Source of the DNA: Nocardia sp. NBC_00565
Lineage (GTDB): Bacteria; Actinomycetota; Actinomycetes; Mycobacteriales; Mycobacteriaceae
Assembly: GCF_036345915.1 (NCBI RefSeq)
Contig: NZ_CP107785.1
Location: 7,192,001-7,256,000, forward strand
DNA length: 64,000 nucleotides
Direction: 5' to 3'
Position numbers and translations under genes: made by a program. The notes under the pieces are model-generated. The model saw only the letters and a program-made list of their open reading frames with translations, did no database searches and was not told the origin of the DNA. Of the stretch, positions 8,209-48,600 are shown piece after piece; positions within the stretch are counted from its first letter, which is position 1; every line of letters starts with the position of its first letter.

Positions 8209-9264
8209 ATGCTGGTCAAGTCGATGAAGACTTTGGCGGAAGTGCGCAGCGATGAACCGTTGACCGCCGCCTATCGCGCCGGACTTCGGTCTCGGACCTA
8301 CCGGACCGCGTCGCTGAACAAGCCAACGGCTGAGCCCGAGATCATCTCGGTGACCACCGCGGACGGTGCCAAGCTCCGGGTCCACGCCTACGGCCCCGCC
8401 GATGGCGAAGTCATCGTGTTGATCCACGGCTGGAGCTGCTGCATCGAGTACTGGAATCCGCAGATCAACGCCTTCGCCGACCGTTACCGCGTGCTCGCCT
8501 ACGACCAGCGCGGCCATGGCGCGAGCACCCTCGGCAGCGCCGGTCCCGGCGCGGACACCCTGGCCGACGACCTCGAGGCCGTCCTGCAAGCCGCCCTCCC
8601 GTTCGGCAAGCGCGCCGTCCTCGTCGGTCACAGCATGGGCGGAATCACCCTGCAGGCGTGGGCATCTCGCTATCCCGAACAGGTCACCCGCCGTGCGTCG
8701 GCCGTGCTCCTGGCCAACACCGCGGCCAGCGATATCCGGTACGAGACCGATCTGCTGCCGCTGCTGAACAAGCCGCTCATGCTGGCCAAACGACCGTTGA
8801 CCGTACTGGGCGCCAGCGTGCGTGTCCCGCTCGTCGTCGCGGAAACCGTACTCACCGCACCGGTTCCGCTGCCGGGCGGTTGGCCGGTCAGCGCGGTCTT
8901 CAAGGCCCGCGTGATGTCCAAGTCCGCCACCCGCGAGGAGGTGGACTTCGCGCTGGGCATCATCCGCTCGTGTCGTCCGCTCACCCGTGGCCTGCACGCC
9001 GCCGCCCTTGCCGCCCTGGACCTCGGCGATGCCGCCGCGCACCTGACGGTCCCGACCACCGTCATCGCGGGCGCCGAAGACCATCTGCTGCCCGAGCGTA
9101 TGTCCCGCCCGATCGTCGAAACCCTGTCCCGCACCGGCCATCTCGCCGACTACCAGGTCTGGCCCACCGGCCACCTCGGCAATATCGAAGCCGCCGACCG
9201 TTTCAACGCCCTGCTCGCCGCCGTGGCCTCCGCCGCCAGCAGCCCCGAGGCCGCCGTGGGCTGA
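8209..9264 (+). CDS. alpha/beta-fold hydrolase
   Basis: This 351-residue protein has the oxyanion motif HGWSC, the conserved YDQRGHGAS and the nucleophile elbow GHSMGG with the serine near residue 142. The acid is in AGAEDHLLP and the histidine in WPTGHLGNIE. An AAAGGAG ribosome site precedes the ATG at 8209. The family includes esterases, lipases and C-C hydrolases; the substrate cannot be assigned. The palindrome just upstream suggests local repression. Confidence 0.85.
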   Translation: MLVKSMKTLAEVRSDEPLTAAYRAGLRSRTYRTASLNKPTAEPEIISVTTADGAKLRVHAYGPADGEVIVLIHGWSCCIEYWNPQINAFADRYRVLAYDQRGHGASTLGSAGPGADTLADDLEAVLQAALPFGKRAVLVGHSMGGITLQAWASRYPEQVTRRASAVLLANTAASDIRYETDLLPLLNKPLMLAKRPLTVLGASVRVPLVVAETVLTAPVPLPGGWPVSAVFKARVMSKSATREEVDFALGIIRSCRPLTRGLHAAALAALDLGDAAAHLTVPTTVIAGAEDHLLPERMSRPIVETLSRTGHLADYQVWPTGHLGNIEAADRFNALLAAVASAASSPEAAVG

Positions 9265-35661: not shown

Positions 35662-36765
35662 ATGAGTACTTTACGGATCAATCCCCGGTGGACTTCCAAA
35701 GCCGCCGCAACAACTATTATCGTGCTCTTCGGTTCTGCCATGCCGTCGGCCTCCGCCGACATCAGCGGCGACGGGTACACACTCGTCGAGTACGCGGTCA
35801 CGAGCACCCTGGCGGAGCCGTGCAATGTGCAGGGCATCTCGAACAGATACCTGTGGGAGATCGAGCAGGAGGCGCGAGTTCTCGGCCGGATCGACCTCGA
35901 GACCGGGAACATCGTGAAGATCCAGCTGCCGCCTGTGACACTACCCGAGATGAATATCACTGTTGAACTACCCGGCCTGCTTTCGGCGGGACCGTGTGAC
36001 ATTGCCCTCGGCGGCGATGGAAAACTGTGGTTCAACGATCAGTACAACAACTCGGTTGGCTGGATCGATCCGATATCACCGGACGGAATTCACGAAATTA
36101 GCCTCCCCACTCCGCTGGCACTGCCGATGAGCCTGGCCACCGGCGCCGACGGGAATATCTACATCACCGAAACCGCGGCAAACAAGGTAGCCAAAGTCGA
36201 CGTCGCCACCCACAAGGTCGATGAATTTCCAGTGCCGACACCAATTTCCGGGCTCATCGGCGGAACTGCTGGCCAGGATGGTGCGCACTGGTTCGTCGAG
36301 ATGGCAGGCAACAAACTCTTGTCCATGGACTACGCCACCAACGCCATGCAGGAATATCCTATCCCGACCCCTAACAGCCTGCCGTTTGTCGTCCGCTCCT
36401 ACGAAGGCAGCATCTGGTTCACCGAATCCGGGGTCAACGCGATTGGCCGTTTCGATCCACGCAGCGGAGAGTTCAGCCAGGTACCCCTGCCGACAGCGGC
36501 GTCGGTACCCATCGGGCTGGCGCGGGGGGTGGATGGGGACCTGTACACCGATGAGAGCATCGGCGGCAAGATCGCCCGCATCGACCCGAGCACGATGAGC
36601 ACCATCGCCGAGTACCCGATCCCGTCCCCGCAGTCATTCCCCGACGAAATCAAACTCGGCCCAGACGGAGCAATCTGGGTGCCGGAGCTACTCAATGGGA
36701 AGATCGCCCGTCTGTGGGTCAATTCATGGGGAGCCGACCCCGGGTTCCCGCACGCGCCGTCATGA
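35662..36765 (+). CDS. secreted Vgb-like beta-propeller protein
   Basis: An AGGGAAACACGG leader precedes the ATG at 35662. The 367-residue protein has a signal peptide (TTIIVLFGSAMPSASA) and repeated propeller blades of the type GxDGxIWFTExxxNxIGRxDP, for example GADGNIYITETAANKVAKVD and EGSIWFTESGVNAIGRFDPR. These are hallmarks of the virginiamycin B lyase (streptogramin lyase)-like family. Most environmental members are not antibiotic lyases, so resistance is not claimed. Confidence 0.82.
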   Translation: MSTLRINPRWTSKAAATTIIVLFGSAMPSASADISGDGYTLVEYAVTSTLAEPCNVQGISNRYLWEIEQEARVLGRIDLETGNIVKIQLPPVTLPEMNITVELPGLLSAGPCDIALGGDGKLWFNDQYNNSVGWIDPISPDGIHEISLPTPLALPMSLATGADGNIYITETAANKVAKVDVATHKVDEFPVPTPISGLIGGTAGQDGAHWFVEMAGNKLLSMDYATNAMQEYPIPTPNSLPFVVRSYEGSIWFTESGVNAIGRFDPRSGEFSQVPLPTAASVPIGLARGVDGDLYTDESIGGKIARIDPSTMSTIAEYPIPSPQSFPDEIKLGPDGAIWVPELLNGKIARLWVNSWGADPGFPHAPS

Positions 36766-36879
36766 CGGCCCGACCTATTTCTTGTGCCTTCTTGGATCGG
36801 GTTTTATCGGGGCGTGCGAGCGGGGCGCAATGATGTCGTGCTCGTCGCGACCCGACTATCCGACGTCCTGCTGCTCGAG

Positions 36880-37032
36880 CACCTTCGCAACACCTCGGTA
36901 TCACTCATGCTCGCACGCGGCATGCCCCCACACATCGTCGCCGCCTGGCACGGCCACGCAATCTCACTATCCATCTACAGCGACGCACAACCCGACGACC
37001 TGAAAGCCGCCGGAGCCGCGCTCTTCGAATGA
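36880..37032 (+). pseudogene. C-terminal fragment of a tyrosine-type integrase
   Basis: The frame reads LRNTSVSLMLARGMPPHIVA, AWHGHAISLSIYSDAQPDDL and then KAAGAALFE and a stop. This is the C-terminal catalytic part of phage/island integrases: HxxR-like region, WHGH and the tyrosine YSD. The N-terminal domain and first catalytic arginine are missing. The fragment lies just left of the island attachment site. Confidence 0.65.
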
Positions 37033-37298
37033 CCCGAAGCCAACGCTCTCGAGCATTGGCACACTGAGAATGCCGAACACCATCCTCGACGGAGCAGAAC
37101 CGGCCTCCGACCTCGAGCCGCTGCGACGCGCGGAATCAAACGGTCAAGAGCGGGGCCTTCGTGCGTGAACGCTGTGGTCGGCGAACCGACCGGTAGTGCG
37201 GCCGCCGCGCCTTTTGTCACCACGCACGAAATCCCTGCGATAACCTGGAGATTCGGACTACCGGGACCAACCGGGGTCGGCGGTTGGGGGACCTACAG
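37033..37298. other. intergenic region between integrase scrap and DUF6082 gene
   Basis: No gene found; short, with no palindrome or ribosome site apart from the start region of the DUF6082 gene. Confidence 0.35.
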
Positions 37299-38126
37299 AT
37301 GAGCATCAGCTCCCGTCGGCACGTCTGGCTTCGCCGGGGTGTCGGTTGGCTGGATCACAGGAGTACTCGACATATTGCCCTCGGCGCGATGGTCGTCACC
37401 GGCGTGGTTGCGGTGCTCTTGTCGCCGCTTCTGCTTCTGCTGCTGCCGACGCCAGACGGCGTGGACTGGGGCCGACTGCGCGAAGTCAGCCAAACCTACG
37501 GGGCGACATCGACAATCGTGTCGACACTCGCTCTCTGCGGAGTTGCGGCTTCCCTGTTCATACAGGCCCAACAGTTCAAGGCGGGCCGATTCGAGACGGT
37601 ACGCCGCTACCACCTGGACTTGAACCGAATCGCGCTGGAAGACCCGACGATCTACGCGCCGTGTATCGGCAAGCTTGTTGAACCACCTGGAATCGAGGCT
37701 CGCCAGTTCTATTACACCGCCACGTGGATGCGGTACGGCCTGATGGGCTATGAAGTTGGCGTGGTCAGCGAACAGTCGCTACGAGACGATGTGCTCGGCA
37801 CTCTATTCAGTAGCGAGATCGGTCGCGACTACTGGACTCAAACAGAGCCACTATGGGGGGTGACGTCGAGTTACAACCGCCGGACGCGGGCCTTCAAACG
37901 CATCGTCGACGACGAATATCAAAGGGCCGTAGCCACCGGACCGCCGCCGATTACGTGGGCTTCGATCCGCGCCTCACAACAGACAGCCGTTCCCCAGGAA
38001 CCGCCCAGTTCCCACGAACGAACCAACTGGCTCACGCCCGGCCGCGTCGCCCTCACCACTCTCGGCGCTGGCGTCGCGCTCGGCGTCGCGATCTCGAGAG
38101 CGAGCCTCAGCCGCTTTGAGCGGTGA
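37299..38126 (+). CDS. DUF6082 family membrane protein
   Basis: The start ATG at 37299 is preferred over the TTG at 37284. The 275-residue protein has two N-terminal membrane helices (IALGAMVVTGVVAVLLSPLL and TIVSTLALCGVAASLFIQAQ) and a soluble domain with RYHLDLNRIAL and MRYGLMGYEVGVVSEQSLR, typical of DUF6082. A third hydrophobic stretch lies at the C-terminus. Function unknown. Confidence 0.8.
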   Translation: MSISSRRHVWLRRGVGWLDHRSTRHIALGAMVVTGVVAVLLSPLLLLLLPTPDGVDWGRLREVSQTYGATSTIVSTLALCGVAASLFIQAQQFKAGRFETVRRYHLDLNRIALEDPTIYAPCIGKLVEPPGIEARQFYYTATWMRYGLMGYEVGVVSEQSLRDDVLGTLFSSEIGRDYWTQTEPLWGVTSSYNRRTRAFKRIVDDEYQRAVATGPPPITWASIRASQQTAVPQEPPSSHERTNWLTPGRVALTTLGAGVALGVAISRASLSRFER

Positions 38127-38242
38127 AGTTGTTCCAAGAACTGCTACACGACCCAGCCGCCGTCCTGGGGCCCTGTCCGGATTCGCCGGGGTTCGGCTTC
38201 CGTAGGCCGACGAGCCACAATCGCGCCCGGCAGGCACCCCAG

Positions 38243-38446
38243 CTAGTCGGTCTCGACAGCTGGCGGCTGGTCGGCGGGCACGAGTCGCGCGATATCGGTG
38301 GACCAAGGGTAGATGCCCGGCCGTGATTCACCCACCGCCTCGACGAGCGCGCGGCTCAGGTCGCCGTCGACGCCGATCTCGAGCACGCGGAACACGTCGA
38401 CGCCACCTGCGACGAGGTGAACTAGGGAGCCTTCTTCGATTGCCAC
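38243..38446 (-). CDS. small hypothetical protein
   Basis: The GTG at 38446 starts a 67-residue acidic protein with VDVFRVLEIGVDGDLSRALV and GIYPWSTDIARLVPADQPPA. The composition is consistent with coding, but no ribosome site is obvious. Unknown function. It may belong to the left flank of the island. Confidence 0.4.
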   Translation of the reverse strand: MAIEEGSLVHLVAGGVDVFRVLEIGVDGDLSRALVEAVGESRPGIYPWSTDIARLVPADQPPAVETD

Positions 38447-38647
38447 GCGCGCAGACTAGCTGAACAGACCGACAGGTTTGGTTACCAGCGACCACGTCCG
38501 CGGGCCATGACCAGCGCGCGATCCATGACCGGATTCGCTCCGGGTGGGGCACAACCGTCGAGTTCATTCGCTGGTTCGACGGTCTCAGCGATCATCGAAA
38601 CCTTGACAGCATCTGAACCTGAGTCAGCCATCCCACTGTTCCAGGTA

Positions 38648-38833
38648 CTAGACACGGGAACCAACCTGGGCGGCGGTCATTCGCGACACATACAACCCGA
38701 ACGCGCGTAGCAGGCCTTCAAGACGCTCGTGACGTCTCCGCGCATGTTCCTCTTCGGTAACGCCGACACGCACACTGCACGTATATCGAATCTGCGTCGG
38801 ATACCAGAAAGGCCCCTGCACACGCTTCCGCAT
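38648..38833 (-). CDS. small hypothetical protein next to the attachment site
   Basis: The 61-residue frame (MRKRVQGPFWYPTQIRYTCS start, EEEHARRRHERLEGLLRAFG middle) ends at 38648. It starts 17 bases left of the left attachment copy. It could be a real gene cut by the island insertion or a spurious frame. Confidence 0.3.
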   Translation of the reverse strand: MRKRVQGPFWYPTQIRYTCSVRVGVTEEEHARRRHERLEGLLRAFGLYVSRMTAAQVGSRV

Positions 38834-38850
38834 GTCAGAGGCCCTTGGAT

Positions 38851-38898
38851 TGGAGCCGCCTGGGGGAATCGAACCCCCGACCTTTTCATTACGAGTGA
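38851..38898 (-). repeat. left attachment site (attL-type copy of tRNA-Thr 3' end)
   Basis: The 48 bases are identical to the tRNA-Thr 3' part including T-arm and acceptor. Identity ends exactly in the anticodon arm region, after GAGTGA. Sequence on both sides differs, as expected for a recombination core. Confidence 0.88.
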
Positions 38899-39100
38899 CC
38901 CCGGAGGCGGGCTTTGGTGTCCAGCTAGCATCGTCCAGTCCAGGTCAGCGGCTTTTCATGTCCCGCTGGTGTCGCTGCGTTCGGCCGGTACCTGCCCGTC
39001 TTGGCACACTGGCGGCACGGTGAAACGGCCCCTGACCTACCCTCAGCCACCGCCTTGGATGGTCAGCGCTAGATATCGGATTGCTACGACCACACAAGGC

Positions 39101-39121
39101 TGTAACACAAATTGCGTTACA
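39101..39121. promoter_or_regulatory. operator of the toxin-antitoxin pair
   Basis: A 21-base near-perfect palindrome with arms TGTAAC and GTTACA ends nine bases before the antitoxin ATG. It agrees with autoregulation by ribbon-helix-helix antitoxins. A GGAG ribosome site follows directly. Confidence 0.6.
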
Positions 39122-39129
39122 CTGGAGAT

Positions 39130-39354
39130 ATGGGAACCCTGAACGTACGAACCGATGACGCGATGGAAAAAGCGCTGGTGGAACTTACTGCGGCACGTCA
39201 CTCTTCCCGGTCCGAAGCTGTCCGCTACGCCCTGCTGCAAACCTACAAGCAACTGCTATTGCAGCAGGCCAACGCCGATGCGCAGCGACTCGCAGACGAC
39301 CCCGACGACCAGGCCGAGATGCTGGCAATCCAGCGGTTCATGGGCGTGGCGTGA
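39130..39354 (+). CDS. ribbon-helix-helix antitoxin
   Basis: The 74-residue protein begins MGTLNVRTDDAMEKALVELT, then SRSEAVRYALL, the CopG/RHH DNA-binding pattern, with an extended C-terminal helix. It overlaps the toxin GTG by four bases (GTGA). Antitoxins neutralise the toxin and repress the operon. The palindrome immediately upstream supports this. Confidence 0.83.
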   Translation: MGTLNVRTDDAMEKALVELTAARHSSRSEAVRYALLQTYKQLLLQQANADAQRLADDPDDQAEMLAIQRFMGVA

Positions 39355-39671
39355 TCTTCCGGGGAGCGATCTACGAGATCAAGGCTCTCCCCGGCGCACG
39401 TGGGCACGAACAGCAGGGCCGCCGCTACGCCGTCATCATCCAATCCGATCGGTTCGCATCCAGCACCGTGATAGTCGCCATGACATCCACCAGCGCCGGA
39501 CCGGCTGTGTACCGACCCGAAATCGAATTCGACGGCACCAAGACCCGCATCCTCGCCGACCAGCTCTACACGGTGTCACCCGAACGCCTCGGCGACTTCA
39601 AAGGCAGCCTCGACGGTAACGAGATAGCCGAACTAGACCGCGCCCTCATGCTGAAACTCGGCCTGCTATAG
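39351..39671 (+). CDS. MazF/PemK-family toxin
   Basis: The 106-residue protein starts at GTG 39351. It has IFRGAIYEIKALPGARGHEQ, RRYAVIIQSD and VIVAMTSTSAGP followed by RILADQLYTVSPERLG, matching the MazF/PemK fold. MazF toxins are sequence-specific ribonucleases. Both genes look intact, so the pair may stabilise the island. Confidence 0.85.
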   Translation: MIFRGAIYEIKALPGARGHEQQGRRYAVIIQSDRFASSTVIVAMTSTSAGPAVYRPEIEFDGTKTRILADQLYTVSPERLGDFKGSLDGNEIAELDRALMLKLGLL

Positions 39672-39922
39672 CTCATCTGGCCCAACCGCCCCGATCGCTC
39701 TCGGCCGAATCGGCCTTGCCCCTTCGAGGCAAAGGGGACCGATGGCCAGTCAGTCAGCAGTTCGTACTCCCACGCGGCTCGAAGCTGCGGAAGCTTCCTT
39801 TCCAGAGCGTCCGGAACGGCCGAGCAGGCGCAGACGCAGGCACGCGGCTTGTCAGCAGGCGATCGTTGACCAGTGCTCGCAGATGTCGCGTGGCGCCCCC
39901 AGGGTGGCGTCGGCTCGGCCCG

Positions 39923-40130
39923 AGCGCGCACGTTCTGCCGCAGTTCCGCAATATCCTGCGCACCGCTCTACCCGGAAGTATCGACGCCACCGTGGATGCC
40001 GACGACGTCTTCGACATGCTCATCGGCGCCATCTGGACCCGAATCGGCATCCTCACCGTCACGTCGCGACACCGTCCGATAGAGCGGATCGTCGACATGA
40101 TCTGCCGCCTGCTGCGGCCGTGTCGGCTGC
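39923..40130 (+). pseudogene. C-terminal fragment of a TetR-family regulator
   Basis: The frame reads LPQFRNILRTALPGSIDATV, DADDVFDMLIGAIWTRIGIL and IERIVDMICRLLRP, the TetR C-terminal ligand domain end. The DNA-binding half is missing; upstream frames are unrelated. Confidence 0.6.
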
Positions 40131-40134
40131 AGTT

Positions 40135-40320
40135 CTACCGGCGGCAGTTGGGGTCGAAGACCAGGCACAGCGCTGACAGCGCCTCACGGAGGGCGCGGTG
40201 ATAGGTGTTCATGCCCCTGCGTTCGGACTCGATCAGACCGGCTTTCTTCAGCTGACCGAGGTGGTGCTCACCGTCGACTCGGCCAGTCCGACCACGCCAG
40301 CGAGATCGCCGGTTTTCCTC
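40135..40320 (-). pseudogene. ArsR-family regulator fragment with a frameshift
   Basis: The complement reads HLGQLKKAGLIESERRGMNT and ends ALSALCLVFDPNCRR and a stop at 40135. The upstream frame (GDLAGVVGLAESTVST) is offset by one base near the recognition helix. ArsR repressors use such helix-turn-helix segments; the C-terminal cysteine resembles the CMT-type metal sensors. Only the C-terminal half is in frame. Confidence 0.6.
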
Positions 40321-40322
40321 GG

Positions 40323-40628
40323 TATTACGAGGGCATGGGCTTCGAATGGGCCCGTCCGACCTCGTTCGCGGACCCGATGTTCAGCCTCGGCGAGGACCTG
40401 CACTATTACGGCGTCGACCACACCCCCTCATACCTGTGGAACTCCGCCACCTGGGAGAACTCCGAGGCACTGCTGGAGTACCTGCCGATCGTTATGTCCG
40501 GTCCCGACGGATGGGACGGCAACGAGACGATTCGGCGCGCGATCGAGATTCGCGAGGGCCGGGTCCAGAACCTACGGATCCTCTCGTTCCAGGGACGCGC
40601 TGCGGCCTACCCGTACGCGGTCGTCTGA
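40323..40628 (+). pseudogene. C-terminal fragment of an N5-carboxyethyl-ornithine-synthase-like / alanine-dehydrogenase-like enzyme
   Basis: The frame has GEDLHYYGVDHTPSYLWNSA, TWENSEALLEYLPIVMSGPD and TIRRAIEIREGRVQN, resembling the C-terminus of the NAD(P)-dependent carboxyethylornithine synthase/saccharopine dehydrogenase family. The Rossmann and catalytic parts are missing. It is next to the broken ArsR, so this may be a mixed remnant. Confidence 0.5.
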
Positions 40629-40787
40629 CCGGGCTGGTGCACCAGCATTCACCGTCCCGATACAACAGCGCTTTTCGTGTCGTCCGCTGTTGCACGCCAT
40701 GGATCGGCCGGGCATGATCACGACCAGCCAGGATTCGAACTCAACGGGCTTGTTGTACAACAGTTCTGACCGGCGATAGAACAGGCA

Positions 40788-40931
40788 TTAGGTCACCATC
40801 ACGCTTTCGCCGACCCTCGGCCTATCGGTAGCGTCGATCAGCCGCGGGCTATGCGCCTCGATGCCTTCCACATACGAGGTCCCCCACCAGCTGATCCAGA
40901 AGTGCTGTTCCTGAACATGATTGGTTGCCAT
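40788..40931 (-). CDS. 47-residue hypothetical protein
   Basis: The ATG at 40931 follows GAGGAGG. The product begins MATNHVQEQHFWISWWGTSY and is rich in aromatic residues. Clear ribosome site and compact frame support a real small gene. Function unknown. Confidence 0.5.
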   Translation of the reverse strand: MATNHVQEQHFWISWWGTSYVEGIEAHSPRLIDATDRPRVGESVMVT

Positions 40932-40980
40932 GACGGGTGCCTCCTCGCTGATCTCGCGGGTGTTCGTCGGAGTCACTACT

Positions 40981-41223
40981 GCCCGGGTTCAGCTGTCCGT
41001 CATGGAGGTACGCGACACCGCTGTCCGTCCGAGCTTGTAGAGCAACGGCCACCCGATCCCAGACATAGGGACGCCGCCGTTGTTGCGCTTGCTCCAAATC
41101 GCAGAACTCGTAGGTGTCGAGTTCGCCATCTGCGATCCGGAGTGCCGCAACCTGGTCGGCGGATAGGCGACCCCCGTCGAAGATGAACATCAAAGAGTCG
41201 TCCCAAGGGTGAACAAACACCAT
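40981..41223 (-). pseudogene. Nudix hydrolase C-terminal fragment
   Basis: The frame includes LMFIFDGGRLSADQVAALRI, DTYEFCDLEQAQQRRRPYVW and YLHDGQLNPG, matching the C-terminal half of an actinobacterial Nudix hydrolase. The Nudix box is absent. The reading frame runs on without its own stop into the small-protein gene. Confidence 0.55.
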
Positions 41224-41400
41224 AGTGGCAATAGGCGCGCCCGAACGGCGCTGCGCGCCTATACGTTCCACGCGTCGTGAACAACGAACCCATCGACGTA
41301 GTCCAGGCGGCTTTCGAAGCTCACGCCATGCACTACCTTCTGCCACCGCGAGTCCATGAGACGACACGGAGGTCTATGACCGAGCGGCGGGCGCCGCTGG

Positions 41401-42618
41401 TCAGGGTTCGAGGTCCGGGCCCGATAGCCGCCGAGCGATCAACCAGACCCCGCCGACTACGAGCAGGGCGAACAGCATCAGTGCACCGCCGAAGACCAAC
41501 AGGATCTGGACCCGGTCGCCCACGCCAAGATTCCCGTTCAACGTGATATTCAGTGAGCCGACCGCGAAGGCGATGATCGCGGCGAACAGCGTCACCAACT
41601 CCACCGCTTGGATCATCGAGCGTCGCACCGAGCCGAGGACACCGGCTAGCGCCTGTTCATGCCGGTCGATTCGATCCTGCTGGGCAGCGGCATGGCGCGC
41701 GATGGTGCGACCGTTCAGGATGACGAGGCGTTGGTTGGTGAATTGTTCGAGCAGCAGTTCGTGGCTTCCGCGCCAGCCGACCGCGGGCAGGCGGTCCAAC
41801 GCCTGGTCGATACTTTCCAGTGCGCCATCGTGGTCGCCGCACAGGAACTGACCGGTGGCCAGGCGGTAGTAGAACATGAAATCACCCGGGTACGCGGTCA
41901 GCGCCTCGGCCGCCGTGGTGCGCAGCAACTCACCCTGCTCCTCGAACGGCACACTCACCGCCAACCCGTTGAGGACGACATCAACCGTCGCTCGAGTCCG
42001 TCCCGGCGCCTGCCACGCCTGGTCGAACAGGGTGCGCGCATACCGCTCGGTGACCTGACGGCTACCGAATGCGGCGAAGGCCCGCAACGCGGTGAACAGC
42101 GGGGCATCACGATGCGATCCAGCAGCCAACGCCAGCGGAGATGATTCCAGGAATTGGTGAAGCTCGTCGAAGCAGAGGTTCGCGCGCAGCTTTCCCGAGT
42201 GGTAGAGGGTCGCGAAAAACGCACGGCTGCAATCACTATCGTGCCCGGCGATCACATCAGCGGTGGTATCGGCGATCTCACCGGCGGACTCTACCGAGTC
42301 GCGGGTGATGAAGCCATAACCCAGCGCCCACTTCTCCCGCACCGCCGCCTGAAACCCCGCCGCGACATGCACACCCAGCCACGCCGCGCACTCTGCGGCG
42401 GTATGCAAAGTCGGCTGCTCTCGGAACCGCAAATTCCAGTAACGATCCGCGCAGATCAGATACGGATCAGTGTCGAAATCGGCGGAACCGACGACGAACT
42501 GCGGCTCGATACGCTCCCGGATGTAGCCGCGCGCGTAGACATCACAGTCCCGATCCAGGTCACGAGACGACGACCCACGCAACGCACCGAGCGCGGACTC
42601 GATCACCGCATGATCCAT
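41401..42618 (-). CDS. hypothetical TPR-like protein with two C-terminal membrane helices
   Basis: The 405-residue protein has a helical N-terminal part (about 1-290) with FYYRLATGQFLCGDHDGALE, a tetratricopeptide-like pair, and two hydrophobic helices near 335-395 (MIQAVELVTLFAAIIAFAVG and ILLVFGGALMLFALLVVGGV). It is divergent from a family-2 glycosyltransferase with a short shared intergenic region of about 90 bases. The role is unknown; an anchored scaffold or sensor is a guess. Both genes are intact, so they are the real cargo of the island. Confidence 0.6.
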   Translation of the reverse strand: MDHAVIESALGALRGSSSRDLDRDCDVYARGYIRERIEPQFVVGSADFDTDPYLICADRYWNLRFREQPTLHTAAECAAWLGVHVAAGFQAAVREKWALGYGFITRDSVESAGEIADTTADVIAGHDSDCSRAFFATLYHSGKLRANLCFDELHQFLESSPLALAAGSHRDAPLFTALRAFAAFGSRQVTERYARTLFDQAWQAPGRTRATVDVVLNGLAVSVPFEEQGELLRTTAAEALTAYPGDFMFYYRLATGQFLCGDHDGALESIDQALDRLPAVGWRGSHELLLEQFTNQRLVILNGRTIARHAAAQQDRIDRHEQALAGVLGSVRRSMIQAVELVTLFAAIIAFAVGSLNITLNGNLGVGDRVQILLVFGGALMLFALLVVGGVWLIARRLSGPDLEP

Positions 42619-42711
42619 AATCTCCCCTGCCTCCCAACGAGATCCGAACGATCCTGCCCACTACCTACCACACCACAGGCGCACTCGTCGGGATCTGGCA
42701 CACTTGCCGCC

Positions 42712-43479
42712 ATGCGGGTAGAGGTCGTGACAGCAGTACACGGCGCCTACGCCCGGTTCCTCCCCGATGCCTGGCGCTCGCTACGTGCCCAAACCCACCC
42801 CGACTGGCACTGGCTCATCCAAGCCGACGGCACCGCCGCTGATGTGCTCGGCCCGCTGCAGGACTGCGGTGCCACCACCGACTCACGAGTCACCCTCGCA
42901 GTCAACGGAACTCGCGAAGGCCCCGCCGTCACCCGCAATATCGCACTCGGCCGCGCGAGCGCACCACTGATCCAAAACCTCGACGCCGACGACGAACTCG
43001 AACCGACCGCGCTACGCTCGCTGGCCACGGCCCTGACTGCCCATCCCGAAGCAGGATTCGCCGTCGGCCCGGCCCGCGACCTGCTGGCCTCCGGCGACCT
43101 GATCGAGTTTCCTCTCTCCTTCCCACCCGGTCCCATTCCCCGGGGCGCGCTCGTTGACTCCTGGATCACCGAACCACACGAATATCGCCTACCCATCCAC
43201 CCGGCAGGCGTGATGTGGCGGCGTGAACTGCTCCTCATGGCAGGCGGCTGGACCGCGATACACAACATGGAGGACACCGGATTACTCATGTCCGCATCCG
43301 CAATGGCTCCCGGCATCGCCATCGACACCGTCACACTGCGCTACCGCAAACACCTTGCTCAGCGTTCCACAAAAACGTCCAGCTTCGAGGGGGGGGGGGA
43401 GCAAATTACGCTAATTCGCAATCGCGCGGCACTACTACTCGCCGGACCCTCATGGCATCCGCGATACCCCCAGCGATAA
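42712..43479 (+). CDS. family 2 glycosyltransferase
   Basis: The ATG at 42712 starts a 255-residue protein with the GT-A fold start RVEVVTAVHGAYARFLPDAW, DWHWLIQADG, and the DxD-type LIQNLDADDELEP. The acceptor region has HNMEDTGLLM. It adds a sugar to an unknown acceptor. An 11-G run at 43389-43399 lies in its 3' part; as sequenced the frame is open (EGGGE). Confidence 0.85.
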   Translation: MRVEVVTAVHGAYARFLPDAWRSLRAQTHPDWHWLIQADGTAADVLGPLQDCGATTDSRVTLAVNGTREGPAVTRNIALGRASAPLIQNLDADDELEPTALRSLATALTAHPEAGFAVGPARDLLASGDLIEFPLSFPPGPIPRGALVDSWITEPHEYRLPIHPAGVMWRRELLLMAGGWTAIHNMEDTGLLMSASAMAPGIAIDTVTLRYRKHLAQRSTKTSSFEGGGEQITLIRNRAALLLAGPSWHPRYPQR

Positions 43480-44252
43480 TGGCTCATGCCTACGCCACAT
43501 CCGATCGTGGTGCACAAACGCCGAATGCGGGCCGTTGGTGGCCCAAGCACGCCGCCACAGCACCCGATGCCCGAACCCGCCGGGCCAAATGCATCGAGAT
43601 TCATCGGCGCGACCTGCCCGATGCCATTCGGCCCCCACTCTCAAAAGATTCGTGATGTCCATCAGAGGACTGGCTCAATGAACAATCCAGTGAAACGGAC
43701 ACGGTCCAAACCTTCGCATCCAATGCGCGAGCGCCCCTGCCCCTGCGGCGCGCGACCGTCTCAGACGACTTTGTGGTCGGCAAGCGCCCAAGTGGGGTTC
43801 TCTCGTCGACCGAGCCGTGGTGGTCAATTGTCTCACCACCGAGTGCGTTCGATCCCGCGTTCGTCCCGGCCGCGTGCTTCCCGACCTGCCCGTGTTGTCC
43901 CATTGTGCGGCTCCGGACCGCGAACCACTTCCCCCGGCAGCGGCGTCGACTGAAGCACGCGCGCCACATCGGCAGGTACACCACGTTCGATCATGGTCCG
44001 GACTCCCCGGATTTCGGACGGACACGTCGCGAATCGGCCGCTACCAGCTGGCCGAAATGTGGTGGCAATGGGCCGGTTTCGGCTACGCAGCAACGCCGAA
44101 GCATGGGCGGACGCAGACCCGGTCGCACAAATCGATCCAGACTTCGTGTTGCGACCCGACGCGCGTTCTGGACGGCCCACGGCTGTCGCCGCGCCTTGCG
44201 GCTCGTAGCGGAGTACATTGAGAATTGTCTTTGACAAGTGTCACTCGAACGC
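43480..44252. other. intergenic region without a recognised gene
   Basis: About 770 bases between the glycosyltransferase and the cutinase promoter. Many overlapping frames are open on both strands, as expected from GC content, but none carries a motif I recognise. Probably decayed cargo. Confidence 0.4.
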
Positions 44253-44260
44253 CTCACAAT
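44231..44260 (+). promoter_or_regulatory. putative promoter of the cutinase gene
   Basis: TTGACA at 44231-44236 is followed at 18 bases by CACAAT (44255-44260), four of six matches to TATAAT. The -10 element lies inside the first palindrome (44253-44268), so a bound repressor would occlude it. Confidence 0.5.
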
Positions 44261-44300
44261 GACGTGAGGGCCGAGGAAGCACTTCTCACAACGGCGTGAG
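44253..44300. promoter_or_regulatory. two tandem CTCAC-N6-GTGAG palindromes
   Basis: Perfect arms CTCAC and GTGAG are found at 44253-44268 and again at 44285-44300, 32 bases apart (about three helical turns), ending 11 bases before the cutinase ATG. The repetition on one face of the helix suggests a cooperative dimer-binding repressor. Confidence 0.65.
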
Positions 44301-44311
44301 AGGTGAGGAAA

Positions 44312-44962
44312 ATGGGCGACCGAAAGGTGGTTCTGTTCAACAAGTGGCGGATGGCATCGGCATTCGCGGTCTTACTGACCGCAGCGAGTGCGGTGATCGG
44401 TCCGCACGCGGCGGCACAATCGTGTGCCGCGGTGGATTTGGTGGTGGCCAGGGGGACCCAGGAACCCGGGTACCTCGGAAACTTCGTCGGTGATCCACTG
44501 TATGTCGCGCTGCGTGCGGCGCTCCCGGTGAGCGTGGTTGCGTATCCGGTGAACTACCCTGCGAATCCGACGGATCCGTCGTCGGTGGGTACGGGTAGCG
44601 CCGATCTGGTCGCACACGTCGCTGATCAAGCCGTGGCATGCCCGGACGAGGAGTTCATCCTGGTCGGCTACTCGCTGGGCGCGGGCGTGGTACACGCAGC
44701 ACTCGGCACCGGTATCGTCGCCGGACTTCCGGGCGTGGTGCAGCTGCCCGGCGATCTCGTCGACCGCGTGGCCGTCGTACTGCTCTTCGGTGACCCGCTG
44801 CGTCTGATCGGGTGGAGCGTTCCCGACCAGTACCTGGACCGCACCGCCGATTTCTGCGCGGCCGGTGACCCGGTCTGTGGCGGCGGCACCGACCCCGAGG
44901 CGCATGCCCACTACAGCGATTTCATCGGTGCCGCAGTGGGATTCAGCGCCGCGCGTTTCTAG
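44312..44962 (+). CDS. cutinase-family serine esterase
   Basis: ATG 44312 follows AGGTGAGG. The 216-residue protein has a signal peptide (ASAFAVLLTAASAVIGPHAA), the N-terminal CAAVDLVVARGTQEPGYLG, the nucleophile elbow GYSLGAG and the Asp/His region DPVCGGG and AHAHYSDF. Cysteines for the two disulphides are present. Cutinases hydrolyse polyester or lipid esters outside the cell. Tight operator control is suggested by the tandem palindromes. Confidence 0.9.
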   Translation: MGDRKVVLFNKWRMASAFAVLLTAASAVIGPHAAAQSCAAVDLVVARGTQEPGYLGNFVGDPLYVALRAALPVSVVAYPVNYPANPTDPSSVGTGSADLVAHVADQAVACPDEEFILVGYSLGAGVVHAALGTGIVAGLPGVVQLPGDLVDRVAVVLLFGDPLRLIGWSVPDQYLDRTADFCAAGDPVCGGGTDPEAHAHYSDFIGAAVGFSAARF

Positions 44963-44965
44963 CAT

Positions 44966-45748
44966 TCGGCCGGGCTCCGCGTGCCGCCATCGCGGTCAAT
45001 TCCTCGCGCCCGAAGAAGAGCCGGGCATCGTCCACGATGAACGAGTCCAAACCCTGGTACGGACACGGCGAATCTCCCGCAGGCCGGGGTCGGCGGTGTC
45101 GAGGTCACCGATCGGCACGATCACCCGACCGGTGTCGGCGGTCGGCAGCTTGGCCTGGTATCCGTCGACAGCCGCGAGCTCGTCGCGGCTGCCGATCCGC
45201 CCGGTGACGAAGGTCTCCGATTGCAGCCGCCGCACGCGCAGGCTGCCCCGCGGCCCTGAGGCCCGCCGAATCTCGTTGAGCACCACGGCGAAAGCTGCAC
45301 CGAGCGGGCCGTCCACGACGTAGGGCACGGGACCGCGCTCGCTGTTGAGGGACCAGAGCACCGCACCGCCTGCGGTGTCGACCGCGGTCCGTACCCAGGC
45401 GCGCCGCAGTTGTTCTGCAAATGTGGTGTCGGCGGCGAACAGGCTCATCCGGCGGCGATCCGGGACAAGCCCACTGGGGCCGTCCGGGATCAGTTCGGCG
45501 TGCAGCTTGGCAGCCGCGCCTCTGCCGTTGGGATAGGCGAAGAGAACGCCGAGTTGCTGTCCGAACTTCCGCGGCCGACCCTGTGCCGCGAGATGGAGAA
45601 GACACGTCGCGACGGTGAGTTTCACCGCATCGGAAGCATCGAGATCTTGGAGCAGATCCACGGCGGGCCACGATATTGGCCTCCACCAATGTTGTTGTCG
45701 CCCTGGGTGATACCGGACGAGCGACTGCACCAAACGAACACCGCCGTC
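44966..45748 (-). pseudogene. Lon-like protease domain plus start of an nSTAND NTPase, frameshifted
   Basis: The main frame to 44996 includes GGAVLWSLNSERGPVPYVVD, GPLGAAFAVVLNEIRR and GRIGSRDELAAVDGYQAKL, resembling Lon/S16-like domains seen in actinobacterial STAND proteins. The usual Ser of a GxSLGAAF motif is not seen (GPLGAAF). A one-base shift near 45080 yields AGDSPCPYQGLDSFIVDDAR and LFFGREELTAMA, the canonical start of nSTAND1 NTPases. The NTPase body is missing after about 44970, where the cutinase gene ends. The gene is therefore doubly broken. Confidence 0.65.
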
Positions 45749-45986
45749 ACGAATGACAGACGGAACCATCCACATTGTGCGCCCAACGCTTGGAGGCACA
45801 GTAACCGGTGGCACTCTCTGGTGTTCTCAACTGCTCAGTGCTGTTCGAGGTGAAGCAGCACGAAAACCCCTTGTCGACGCGCTATTCCGTAATCGGCATG
45901 ATGGACATCGCCCACACCTCCTAGGAGCCTCCAACTGATACCTATCGGCGGTCTTGCTTATGGTGTGCGTGTGGCGCTGAAGGATC

Positions 45987-46400
45987 TCACAAGACGCTGT
46001 CGTCGCGGCGATCAACCTTACCCGCTAGCCGGTCGACCACGATGTTGCCGCGATCGTCGACCTCGACCAGCTCACGCAGGGCGGGCAGAAGCGCTTCCTG
46101 ATAGAAGTACGCCGCACGAATCGGAGTACCACGACGGGTGTGGAATAACAGCGCGTCGTGCGGGCGATCCAGATCCAACAACTCGAGGGTCTCGAACGGG
46201 ACGTTCACCGTCCGCACACCCCGCTTGGTCTTCGGCGGACCCAACCGCCACCCAGTGTCGGTGTACTTGAACGCCTTATTGATCCGCACCCCACCGGTAT
46301 CCCTATTGACATCACCCACGGTCAAGGCGCCGACCTCGCTGGGTCGGGCCATCGACGCGAGGCAGAACTCCGTCTGGGCATGCCAGCGGCCACAGCATTC
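45987..46400 (-). pseudogene. tyrosine integrase fragment (middle catalytic part)
   Basis: The complement reads FCLASMARPSEVGALTVGDV, VRINKAFKYTDTGWRLG and KRGVRTVNVPFETLELLDLD. This is the first half of the catalytic domain with the active-site arginine in ARPSEVGAL. The C-terminal HxxR and tyrosine are absent; the frame stops at 45987. It lies 0.85 kb from the tRNA attachment site, the expected spot for an island integrase. Confidence 0.7.
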
Positions 46401-46623
46401 GATATGAGCCGTCGACGATGGATGGATCAGAGCGGCCCGCGCGGCGGCGCGCCCCCGTGGTCATCGTCGTCGCCCTCAAAATGCGTGTGCCATCACGGTA
46501 GCGGGATCGGACGACTCCCATACAACCTCTGATCGCGAACAGTCACAACCGGCTTGGGAGAACCGACAGTGATACTGCCCGCGATGACTGTTCGGTGGCG
46601 CCTGTCAATCGGTAGTGGTCTAA

Positions 46624-47112
46624 GAAAGATTCAGTGACAGAACGAATTTCGGTTCGCGTTGTGCCGCCGAAGTGCCCAGCGTGTTGCCCATCACGAGCCG
46701 CGGCTCGTGATCAGGGGAATCGGCTGTCGCGGTGCGGAGTACCACTAGTCCGTCATCGTCGCGGACGCAGATGAGGTCCGCGCACATCGCGACGGACGTG
46801 GGGGGTCGATCGTCGCCGGATTTCGAGCAGCGTCCGTTGGCGCGGCGGATCGATGACGCGCACCGTATCGTCCTGGTCACCGACGATCAGCAGGGGTCGC
46901 CGATCTGTGATCCATCCGATGTCCACCGCGGTGATGCGGGCGGTGCCGGTGCATCGCACCGGTTTCCATAGCGTTGTTTCGGCCCCGGCATCCCAGGCAT
47001 GGATGGCGTTGTCCTGGTCCGCGACCACTACCACGGACGGGCCATGGGGTCGTGGGACTCTCCCGGCCGCTGACACACCGAATGTGCCAGACAGTACCAC
47101 CCAACACGCATA
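46624..47112 (-). pseudogene. WD40-repeat C-terminal fragment, frameshifted
   Basis: The complement reads VVVVADQDNAIHAWDAGAET, ITAVDIGWITDRRPLLIVGD and QDDTVRVIDPPRQRTLLEIR, two WD-like blades. After about 46800 the frame shifts; the next frame reads CADLICVRDDDGLVVLRTAT and continues to LNLS and a stop. Such WD40 tails follow NTPase domains in large STAND conflict proteins. No N-terminal part is adjacent. Confidence 0.6.
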
Positions 47113-47244
47113 CATTCAGCCCGTCAGCGCCTGCGCGCTCCCCCAAATCGAGGCGACTCTTCCCACCCGTTGGCACACCCTTGGCACACTGGGTATCCCG
47201 TGCAACGTACGCAGATCACCGAAATAGCCTATGACCTGGGAAAA

Positions 47245-47320
47245 TGGAGCCGCCTGGGGGAATCGAACCCCCGACCTTTTCATTACGAGTGAAGCGCTCT
47301 ACCGACTGAGCTAAGGCGGC
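47245..47320 (-). tRNA. tRNA-Thr (anticodon CGT)
   Basis: The complement folds as a 76-base cloverleaf: acceptor GCCGCCT/AGGCGGC, D-arm GCTC/GAGC, anticodon loop CTCGTAA giving CGT, T-arm GGGGG/CCCCC with TTCGATT, and encoded CCA. The 3' 48 bases equal the left attachment copy. The gene is intact and sits at the island's right end, next to holB as in mycobacteria. Confidence 0.95.
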
Positions 47321-47394
47321 GTGCCTTTCGGCTTCGCGAGTCTATCGTCTCGATGGGCGGATCGCGAAAACGGGTGGTCACCCGGCGCCGATCG

Positions 47395-48600
47395 TCAGGC
47401 GGATTGGGCGGACATGAGGGTGGCGACCATAGCGGCGAGGGCGAAGCGAGGTTTGACGTTGATGTCGAGGGCTTCGCGGCAGGCGAGGACGGCCTCGATG
47501 GAGCGGAGCAGGCCCTCGGGGCGAACTCGGTCGGCGAGGTCGTGGATCTGGTCGGACATATCGGGGTGGGTGAGGGCGACGCCGGAACCGTTGCGGGCGG
47601 CACCGAAACGGATGGCGAGCGCGTCACGGTAGACGCCTGCGACGTCGATGAGGGCACGGTCCAGCGCATCTCGACCGGTGCGGGTGGCACGGGATTTCTG
47701 CCTGCGCTCCAAATCCTTGAGCACACCGGCCGAGCCGCGCGTCGCACCCGCGGCGCCTTTGCCGGTGCCGCCCGCTCCGAGTGCGGTTGCCAACTCGTCG
47801 CGTTCCCGTTCGTCACGGGCCGCGCTCATCTGCTTGGCCTCGTCGTCGGCGGACTTCACCAATTCGTCGGCCGCCGCATAGGCCGCACCCGGCCGCGTAA
47901 CCGCGGACACCAGCGCCAACGCCCGCTGGCGGCGGGCCCGAGCCTCTTCGTCGGTAGCCAGTCGCCGGGCCCGCCCGACGTGACCGCCGCTCACCGAGGC
48001 CGCCCACGTGGCGGTCTTCTCATCGAGCTCGTCGCGCTCCCGCAGTACCTGCGCGATGGCGGGCACCGAGGGCGTCACCAGATGCACATGCCGACAGCGC
48101 GACCGCAGTGTCACTGAGATGTCCTCCGGATCGACCGACGGCGCACACAGCAGGAAGACCGTCCGATCCGGCGGCTCCTCGACCACCTTCAACAGCACAT
48201 TGCCCGCCGCCTCGGTCAACCGATCGGCATCCTCGATGAGCACCACCTGCCACCGACCAGTGCTCGGCCGCCGCGAGGCGATCTGCACGATCTCGCGCAT
48301 CTCCTTGGTGCTGATGCTCAGCCCCTCCGGAATCACCCGCCGCACATCACCATGCGTCCCCGCCATCGTGGTCGTACACGCATGGCAACGCCCACACCCC
48401 GGCGTCCCCTCGTCGGTGCATTGCAGCGCAGCCGCAAAGCACAGTGCCGCAACAGATCTCCCCGATCCCGGTGGTCCGGTGAACAGCCACGAATGCGTCA
48501 TCGCCCCATTGCCCGTCCCCCCACGAGCGGCAACCGAGGCAGCCGTCAATTCCGACTCGACCGCATCCTGGCCGACCAGCCGATCGAAGACACCCGCCAC
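47395..48600 (-). CDS. holB: DNA polymerase III subunit delta'
   Basis: The GTG at 48600 starts a 401-residue clamp-loader subunit beginning VAGVFDRLVGQDAVESELTA. It has a Walker A-like GPPGSGRS, a zinc-binding module (CGRCHAC) and the VLIEDADRLTEAAGNVLLKV motif. The sensor RSRCRHV is present. It functions in the gamma complex loading the beta sliding clamp. The C-terminal helical domain is standard. Confidence 0.9.
   Translation of the reverse strand: MAGVFDRLVGQDAVESELTAASVAARGGTGNGAMTHSWLFTGPPGSGRSVAALCFAAALQCTDEGTPGCGRCHACTTTMAGTHGDVRRVIPEGLSISTKEMREIVQIASRRPSTGRWQVVLIEDADRLTEAAGNVLLKVVEEPPDRTVFLLCAPSVDPEDISVTLRSRCRHVHLVTPSVPAIAQVLRERDELDEKTATWAASVSGGHVGRARRLATDEEARARRQRALALVSAVTRPGAAYAAADELVKSADDEAKQMSAARDERERDELATALGAGGTGKGAAGATRGSAGVLKDLERRQKSRATRTGRDALDRALIDVAGVYRDALAIRFGAARNGSGVALTHPDMSDQIHDLADRVRPEGLLRSIEAVLACREALDINVKPRFALAAMVATLMSAQSA

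What the first reader, a model, noticed from the sequence alone, without database searches (positions are those of the whole stretch)
38851..47292. Genomic island inserted at tRNA-Thr with matching attachment repeats
A 48-base segment of the tRNA-Thr 3' part is copied exactly at 38851-38898, while the intact gene lies at 47245-47320. Flanking bases differ at both ends, as for a recombination core. The island is 8.4 kb and holds an integrase fragment near the tRNA plus several intact cargo genes. The duplication is directly visible; integration by an integrase is established knowledge for such layouts.
Basis: partly seen in the sequence, partly recalled or inferred. Interest (0 to 1): 0.85.

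Follow-up and report, generated by a model that had tools for sequence, protein, structure and literature searches.

The report
Stranded tRNA island carrying sugar-gene switch
An 8.4-kb block of DNA that likely came from outside sits at a tRNA-Thr gene of a likely Nocardia bacterium with both docking ends present but without the enzyme that likely inserted it, and one of its sugar-transfer genes holds the genome's only run of eleven Gs, which likely flips the end of that protein between alternative forms.

Summary
The repeat is real: 48 bp of the tRNA-Thr(CGT) 3' part is copied exactly 8,394 bp away and nowhere else in the 9.7-Mb genome. The integrase reading needs correction. Both island ends carry TTGGCACAC-type repeats placed nearly as in five other tRNA-Thr islands; two of these keep a full-length integrase. 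That integrase is absent from the island, whose integrase fragment is of another class and lacks its catalytic end. The island works most like a cis-mobilizable element. At least 16 of 150 genomes have paired cores here (truncated listing). The cargo held a surprise: a glycosyltransferase gene contains the genome's only G11 run. Runs of 10-14 G recur at the same codons in six other Nocardia genomes and four of another family, in-frame and out-of-frame; 43 of 120 listed public homologues diverge at that point. This likely is a conserved phase-variation switch. Mobility and switching are untested.

The parts
38851..38898 (.). left attachment core: displaced 48-bp copy of the tRNA-Thr 3' part
47245..47320 (-). 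intact tRNA-Thr(CGT); 47245-47292 is the right attachment core
39001..39009 (+). left arm-type repeat TTGGCACAC, 102 bases after the core (102-104 in G159, G093, G143 and G170, the N. wallacei genome)
47170..47189 (+). two right arm-type repeats TTGGCACAC, 11 bases apart, at -75 and -64 from the core (-67/-56 in relatives)
38749..38850 (.). displaced sequence that adjoins an intact tRNA-Thr in G068, G027, G137, G069; holds a stable hairpin read in the tRNA direction (not listed by the terminator pattern scan)
39112..39354 (+). ribbon-helix-helix antitoxin-like gene (PF01402)
39351..39671 (+). PemK/MazF-like toxin gene (PF02452)
39716..40201 (+). ORF with a weak TetR C-terminal match, below the curated cut-off; probably a remnant
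40327..40781 (+). gene fragment 97.8% identical to a G151 locus; its first 368 bp are 97.3% identical to another place in the own genome
41401..42618 (-). 405-aa protein of a widespread actinobacterial family; relatives are named hypothetical or tetratricopeptide-repeat protein
42712..43479 (+). family-2 glycosyltransferase gene (PF00535), divergent from the 405-aa gene
43389..43399 (+). 11-G tract within the glycosyltransferase gene (codons 226-230), the only G11 or C11 run in the genome
44303..44962 (+). cutinase-family gene (PF01083)
44996..45814 (-). 272-aa ORF, no Pfam, NCBIfam or PADLOC match
46068..46388 (-). tyrosine-integrase fragment of another class (57% to residues 241-347 of the G034 integrase); N- and C-terminal parts not found
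36874..37026 (+). outside the island: 53-aa C-terminal stub of a class-T integrase (81% to G159), followed by an arm repeat at 37056

Best explanation
This is an 8.35-kb island at tRNA-Thr(CGT) that keeps both attachment cores and the arm-type repeats of one integrase class on both sides but carries only a fragment of an integrase of another class, so it likely can no longer move by itself, and its glycosyltransferase gene holds an 11-G tract that likely switches the protein's C-terminal end by slippage. Shown: the core repeat, the arm repeats and their spacing, the absence of the matching integrase from the island, the flank-core-tRNA junction in other genomes, and the G tract with in-frame and out-of-frame lengths in related genes. 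Inferred: a class-T tyrosine integrase recombined the element's core with the tRNA gene; the incoming copy rebuilt the tRNA; the integrase gene was later lost. The element would then behave like a cis-mobilizable element, able to leave only if a class-T integrase arrives; the RHH/PemK pair would help keep it. Also inferred: slipped-strand mispairing of the G run toggles the last ~25 residues of the glycosyltransferase between the conserved end and unrelated tails, likely altering its activity or its interplay with the divergent 405-aa partner.
For: Repeat and uniqueness. Junction in four genomes. TTGGCACAC occurs 4 times in 64 kb, all on + and all at island ends or the older relic; 0 of 100 shuffles reach 4. 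The left arm lies 102-104 bases after the core in five of six class-T islands and at 91/102 (TCGGCAC form) in the sixth. Both island ends match the four class-T islands compared (0 of 200 shuffles each); none of nine islands with other integrases does so (lowest 5 and 6 of 200). The cognate integrase is absent from the island at E<=1; the only class-T-like integrase in the own genome at E<=1e-20 (11 of 41 candidates scored) is 50% identical, has a TGA and lies at tRNA-Val. Tract: unique in 9.7 Mb; lengths 11, 11, 11, 12, 12, 12, 14, 6 in eight of 12 close Nocardia genes, own included, and 10, 12, 10, 10, 7 in five of seven genes of another family. GGG codons at the three tract glycines: 27 of 31, against 23 of 181 at other conserved glycines. 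43 of 120 listed homologues break at residues 222-236, 39 of them with a Gly run; of 27 with a testable tail, 16 match frame +1 or +2 of the conserved tail above shuffles and none matches frame 0 so. The closest public protein differs only by one Gly in the tract.
Against: Arm motifs were picked after looking at the ends, and class T was defined by them, so the end comparison is partly circular; an unbiased shared-8-mer test exceeds all its shuffles in only 5 of 19 islands, the window among them. The window's right arms sit 8 bases further from the core than in relatives, which could impair function. No island with the same interior is known, so loss of the integrase after entry is inferred. 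Four of 12 close Nocardia homologues and two of seven in the other family lack the tract. The genes compared share ancestry, so the codon counts are not independent. Homopolymer lengths are error-prone in assemblies. The tract is close to the C-terminus, so an out-of-frame product keeps the catalytic domain and need not be inactive.
Confidence: 0.7

Rival explanations
1. The island was moved by an integrase of the G034 class, whose fragment it still carries, and the TTGGCACAC repeats are incidental.
For: The fragment lies on the same strand as the G034 integrase, and its homologous residues lie at a similar distance from tRNA-Thr (about 0.86 against 0.74 kb, by arithmetic).
Against: Two forms of the repeat seen by eye at the G034 end are absent from 38001-47400; both ends match class T and not the other classes compared.
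Confidence: 0.1
2. The island is a composite left by tandem insertion of two or more elements at the same tRNA, followed by deletion between them, so that the left and right class-T ends come from different elements.
For: An older class-T relic lies outside at 36874-37064; the left flank itself may be an element end; the interior is a mosaic with a G034-class piece and a fragment near-identical to another locus.
Against: No third core copy was found inside the island; the resemblance to a core near 37113 is not above shuffles.
Confidence: 0.3
3. The G tract is not a switch: it is a neutral or protein-level constraint (three glycines), with sequencing errors making the length differences.
For: Homopolymer errors are common (general knowledge); four of 12 close homologues encode the region without the tract.
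Against: GGG is used at 27 of 31 tract glycines against 23 of 181 elsewhere; other frames of the same tail recur in deposited proteins; no other G11 run exists in the genome.
Confidence: 0.2
4. The G tract acts by transcriptional or ribosomal slippage, making both protein forms in every cell rather than switching between cells.
For: The coding sequence after the tract is kept in some relatives whose tract is out of frame; slippage on runs is known in other systems (recalled).
Against: Length differs between relatives, as expected for DNA slippage; nothing here tests RNA.
Confidence: 0.1

Closest known systems
Cis-mobilizable elements (CIME), as defined in PMC5704250 and PMC7563491 (passages seen)
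   Same: Both attachment sites kept, integration genes lost, sits in a hotspot with other decayed elements.
   Different: CIMEs derive from conjugative or mobilizable elements; class-T relatives here carry excisionase-like, replication- or primase-like and, in G093, phage-head-like genes, and no conjugation gene was recognised among the proteins scanned.
tRNA-gene genomic islands of the Islander kind (PMC4383910, abstract seen)
   Same: Intact tRNA and displaced fragment mark the ends exactly.
   Different: Islander requires an encoded integrase; this island has only a non-matching fragment, so such a filter may drop or mis-assign it.
Actinobacterial AICEs (PMC3218068, passages seen)
   Same: Same host group; integration at tRNA genes, including tRNA-Thr for pSE211-type integrases.
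   Different: No translocase or replication gene was recognised among the island ORFs scanned.
Homopolymeric-tract phase-variable glycosyltransferases such as those of Campylobacter (PMC3068675, passages seen); Neisseria lgt genes and Streptomyces pglX are recalled, from no call
   Same: G run inside a glycosyltransferase gene, lengths in and out of frame.
   Different: Here it is in Actinobacteria, at the same position in two families, and affects only the last ~25 residues.

Membership tests
tRNA-gene genomic island | intact tRNA plus displaced 3' fragment as direct repeat | tested here: met
tRNA-gene genomic island | flank and tRNA contiguous at the core where the island is absent | tested here: met
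   (G068, G027, G137, G069)
tRNA-gene genomic island | encodes an integrase | tested here: not met
   only a 107-residue homologous fragment of another class
Cis-mobilizable element (CIME) | attL and attR retained | tested here: met
   cores and arm repeats on both sides
Cis-mobilizable element (CIME) | integration and transfer genes lost | tested here: met
   no cognate integrase; no excisionase, relaxase or translocase among the 18 island ORFs scanned; 35 class-T cargo proteins give one marginal match, E 0.001 over 33 residues; small ORFs not all scanned
Cis-mobilizable element (CIME) | derived from a conjugative or mobilizable element | tested here: inconclusive
   class-T relatives look satellite- or phage-like rather than conjugative
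Cis-mobilizable element (CIME) | mobilised by an element that integrates next to it | not testable with these tools
   needs an excision experiment
Tyrosine-integrase attachment site with arm-type sites | class-specific short repeats on both sides of the core | tested here: met
   window; two of 17 islands (G158, G160) show their class repeat at one end only
Tyrosine-integrase attachment site with arm-type sites | integrase binds the repeats | not testable with these tools
   needs binding or footprinting
Poly-G phase-variable (contingency) gene | long homopolymer inside the reading frame, rare in the genome | tested here: met
Poly-G phase-variable (contingency) gene | tract length varies, with in-frame and out-of-frame forms | tested here: met
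   between species:
Poly-G phase-variable (contingency) gene | length changes within one strain | tested here: inconclusive
   one otherwise identical public protein is shorter by one Gly in the tract; its source is not shown and read quality is unknown
Poly-G phase-variable (contingency) gene | switch alters a phenotype | not testable with these tools
   no experiment

The most novel reading that the evidence does not exclude
The island's glycosyltransferase, with its divergent 405-aa partner, is one copy of an ancient poly-G phase switch shared by Nocardia, Amycolatopsis-type bacteria and probably Streptomyces, a contingency locus kept at the same three glycine codons across families and here carried by an integrase-free island whose missing integrase can be named from arm repeats that act as a barcode.
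Probability: 0.55. Interest if true: 0.75.

Novelty: new variant of a known kind. Interest (0 to 1): 0.55.

Why it matters
One tRNA gene serves several integrase classes in this genus, using the same core but each with its own arm repeat at similar distances; this lets an island without an integrase be assigned to the enzyme that likely moved it, a group that integrase-requiring island finders leave out. Separately, a poly-G tract kept at the same codons of one glycosyltransferase family across actinobacterial families would be a cheap, testable case of phase variation in high-G+C soil and opportunistic bacteria. My single paper search on this (open-licence papers only) listed two papers, on Campylobacter and Helicobacter, and none holding the word Nocardia; that is no proof of absence.

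Tried and rejected
Rejected: that the integrase fragment in the island is the cognate enzyme. Rejected as unproven: a third, decayed core at about 37113; its alignment score of 19 lies within shuffles (mean 16.4, maximum 28), although the integrase stub and repeat beside it resemble the tRNA-proximal end in G031. A weak core-like hit at 9170-9205 was not followed. Defence-gene scan of ten proteins of the island and its left side: no PADLOC match at E<=0.01. Class-T integrase in phage records: only Rhodococcus phage REQ2 (two records of it), 37% over half the protein; in plasmids: none at E<=1e-20. A PDB profile search gave only general glycosyltransferases over residues 3-132, nothing about the C-terminal end. 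The terminator pattern scan did not list the hairpin left of 38851, though folding finds it. A structure prediction of the glycosyltransferase was asked twice and the machine did not answer, so the C-terminal end has no model. A paper on the Streptomyces Pgl system was not held. Paper searches used: (listings only, save the five papers named in Closest known systems).
Full report
OBSERVATION. The window holds one tRNA gene, tRNA-Thr(CGT), at 47245-47320 on the minus strand. Its 3' 48 bases, from the anticodon arm to the encoded CCA, recur exactly at 38851-38898 in the same orientation. In the 9,711,624-bp genome these two are the only exact copies. The interior 38899-47244 has 63.7% G+C against 68.0% to the right. 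None of 150 genomes of the genus showed the interior as a whole; the longest matches are about 2 kb (where the two best candidates per genome were scored).

EMPTY SITE. Searching 38600-38898 in 150 genomes gave matches that run through the core into the left flank in G068 (150 bp, 86%), G027 (112 bp, 89%), G137 (145 bp of query, 78%) and G069 (85 bp, 87%). In all four the tRNA is intact (0 mismatches to the window's) and no second core lies in the stretch fetched, which reached 2.6, 19.8, 7.1 and 9.8 kb left of the tRNA respectively. The flank folds, in the tRNA's direction of reading, into a stable hairpin with a short U run (z -3.2; 0 of 200 shuffles as stable), while the sequence now next to the tRNA does not (z +0.7); the simple terminator scan does not list the hairpin. 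The island may thus have parted the tRNA from its terminator. A caution: G027 aligns to its relative G001 at 91% up to the tRNA except for about 297 bp directly beside it, and the matching flank lies in those bases. The flank may therefore be the end of an older element rather than native chromosome. The wider region supports layering: in 10 of 20 relative loci the match to the window ends between positions 9197 and 9297 and resumes only at the core, apart from one or two matches under 300 bp; G009 matches parts of 11.9-20.6 kb as well.

A HOTSPOT WITH SEVERAL INTEGRASE CLASSES. In the listing, which is truncated, 16 of 150 genomes (own included) have two core copies on one contig. Of 39 relative loci tested, chosen partly because one search showed a second copy, 17 have further core copies, two of them shorter or weaker (G022, G031). 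The ends of these islands carry short repeats about 11 bases apart, different from island to island but alike in islands whose integrase ends look alike: TTGGCACA, TTAGTTGG, GTGCGGACT, GTGACAA, TGACCACA and CGTGTCG types. Left repeats start mostly 91-147 bases after the core and right repeats 53-89 bases before it; two of 17 islands (G158, G160) show their repeat at one end only. I chose these motifs by eye. In an unbiased count of shared 8-mers between the two ends, 5 of 19 islands, the window's among them, exceed all 200 shuffles.

THE WINDOW'S ISLAND IS CLASS T. TTGGCACAC occurs four times in the 64 kb, at 37056, 39001, 47170 and 47181, all on the plus strand; no shuffle of 100 had four. 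The left repeat is 102 bases after the core, as in G159 (102), G093 (104), G143 (103) and G170 (103); G031 has TCGGCAC forms at 91 and 102. The right repeats are at -75/-64, against -67/-56 in G159, G093, G143 and G140, -67 in G170 and -56 in G031. Both window ends align to the four class-T islands compared better than all 200 shuffles each, and to none of nine other-class islands so; since class T was defined by the repeat, this test is partly circular, though the alignments reach beyond it. Relatives of this integrase with TTGGCAC-like repeats 26-71 bases after the aligned end also sit at tRNA-Pro, tRNA-Ala and tRNA-Val genes, though not every member shows the repeat. Named carriers of relatives include Nocardia miyunensis, N. 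wallacei, N. cyriacigeorgica and Mycolicibacterium species. The genus name of the window rests on such relatives.

THE INTEGRASE IS MISSING. The intact class-T integrase of G159 (457 aa; Pfam Phage_integrase just under its cut-off, PHROG integrase at 2.4e-33) finds nothing in the island at E<=1; its only strong match in the window is a 53-aa C-terminal stub at 36874-37026, outside the island and next to the repeat at 37056. The fragment inside the island, 46068-46388, is 57% identical to residues 241-347 of the G034 integrase, which lies directly beside tRNA-Thr in G034 and is flanked by another repeat seen by eye. In the own genome the one class-T-like integrase at E<=1e-20 is 50% identical, carries a TGA and lies at tRNA-Val. 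Of nine genomes with class-T integrase pieces beside, or class-T ends at, tRNA-Thr (window, G159, G093, G143, G031, G140, G142, G161, G170), two keep a full-length uninterrupted gene; in G142 and G161 no left core and no right repeat was found, and in G140 no left repeat. Class-T relatives carry excisionase-like (just under the cut-off), regulator, replication- or primase-like and, in G093, phage-head-like genes; 35 such proteins give one marginal match in the window's island (E 0.001, 33 residues).

CARGO. An RHH/PemK toxin-antitoxin pair, a 405-aa protein, a family-2 glycosyltransferase, a cutinase-family protein and a 272-aa ORF are open; other stretches look like fragments. A 455-bp piece at 40327-40781 is 97.8% identical to G151, and 368 bp of it 97.3% identical to another place in the own genome.

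THE G TRACT. The glycosyltransferase gene (42712-43479) contains G11 at 43389-43399, coding for part of Phe-Glu-Gly-Gly-Gly-Glu. It is the only G11 or C11 run in the genome. Of the 12 closest Nocardia genes, own included, seven have 11-14 G at the same place (11, 11, 11, 12, 12, 12, 14), one has 6 (and an early stop), and four have interrupted or no runs. In another family, five of the seven genes found in 390 genomes have 10, 12, 10, 10 or 7 G and two have none; L254 of that family has the tail of P0200, named Amycolatopsis suaedae. Lengths of 11 and 14 read on in the Nocardia genes, 12 does not. At the three tract glycines GGG is used 27 times of 31, at other conserved glycines 23 of 181 (related genes, so not independent). 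Among the 120 homologues listed of 156 found, 75 align to the end, 43 break at residues 222-236 and two end at 238 and 241; 39 of the 43 have a run of at least three glycines. Of the 43, four without a Gly run and 12 with tails under nine residues were set aside; of the other 27, 16 match frame +1 or +2 of the conserved tail (eight each) at 5 or fewer of 100 shuffles and 11 are weak, two of these best in frame 0; at least four of the 16 are probably the same genes as my templates. The closest public protein, P0122 (source not shown), equals the window's in every residue but lacks one glycine of the tract. The 405-aa gene and the glycosyltransferase seem to travel together: 47 contig lengths are shared between the two lists of 120, 14 of them under 10 kb, and both genes align as one block in G096, G097, G095 and G029.

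READING. I take the island as a stranded integrative element that works like a cis-mobilizable element but is not filed as one, because its parent may be a phage satellite rather than a conjugative element. I take the G tract as a likely phase switch. Movement, integrase binding, switching within a strain and the sugar made are all untested.

Noticed in passing
window 43389-43399: G11 run inside the glycosyltransferase gene, unique in the genome and recurring at the same codons in other species with in-frame and out-of-frame lengths.
   Followed up: yes
window 36784-37064: C-terminal stub of a class-T integrase plus one TTGGCACAC repeat outside the island: likely the end of an older, decayed element at the same tRNA.
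   Followed up: partly
window 38787-38843: Stable hairpin that adjoins tRNA-Thr in other genomes now lies 8.4 kb away from the intact tRNA gene.
   Followed up: partly
window 40327-40781: Gene fragment almost identical to loci in G151 and elsewhere in the own genome, pointing to recent exchange.
   Followed up: partly
window 35662-36765: Protein resembling the Vgb (streptogramin lyase) family far below the curated cut-off; outside the island.
   Followed up: no
own genome C1:7770029-7771261: Uninterrupted integrase frame of the G034 class (46% and 65% identical in two pieces), target unknown.
   Followed up: no
G017 contig C9 (L010, L039): tRNA-Thr and the sequence that adjoins it on the right in the window lie about 93 kb apart, suggesting insertion or rearrangement on the 5' side of the tRNA.
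   Followed up: no
L213 16144-16281: Several long G or C runs (10-25) near the end of a N. wallacei contig; possibly an assembly artefact.
   Followed up: no
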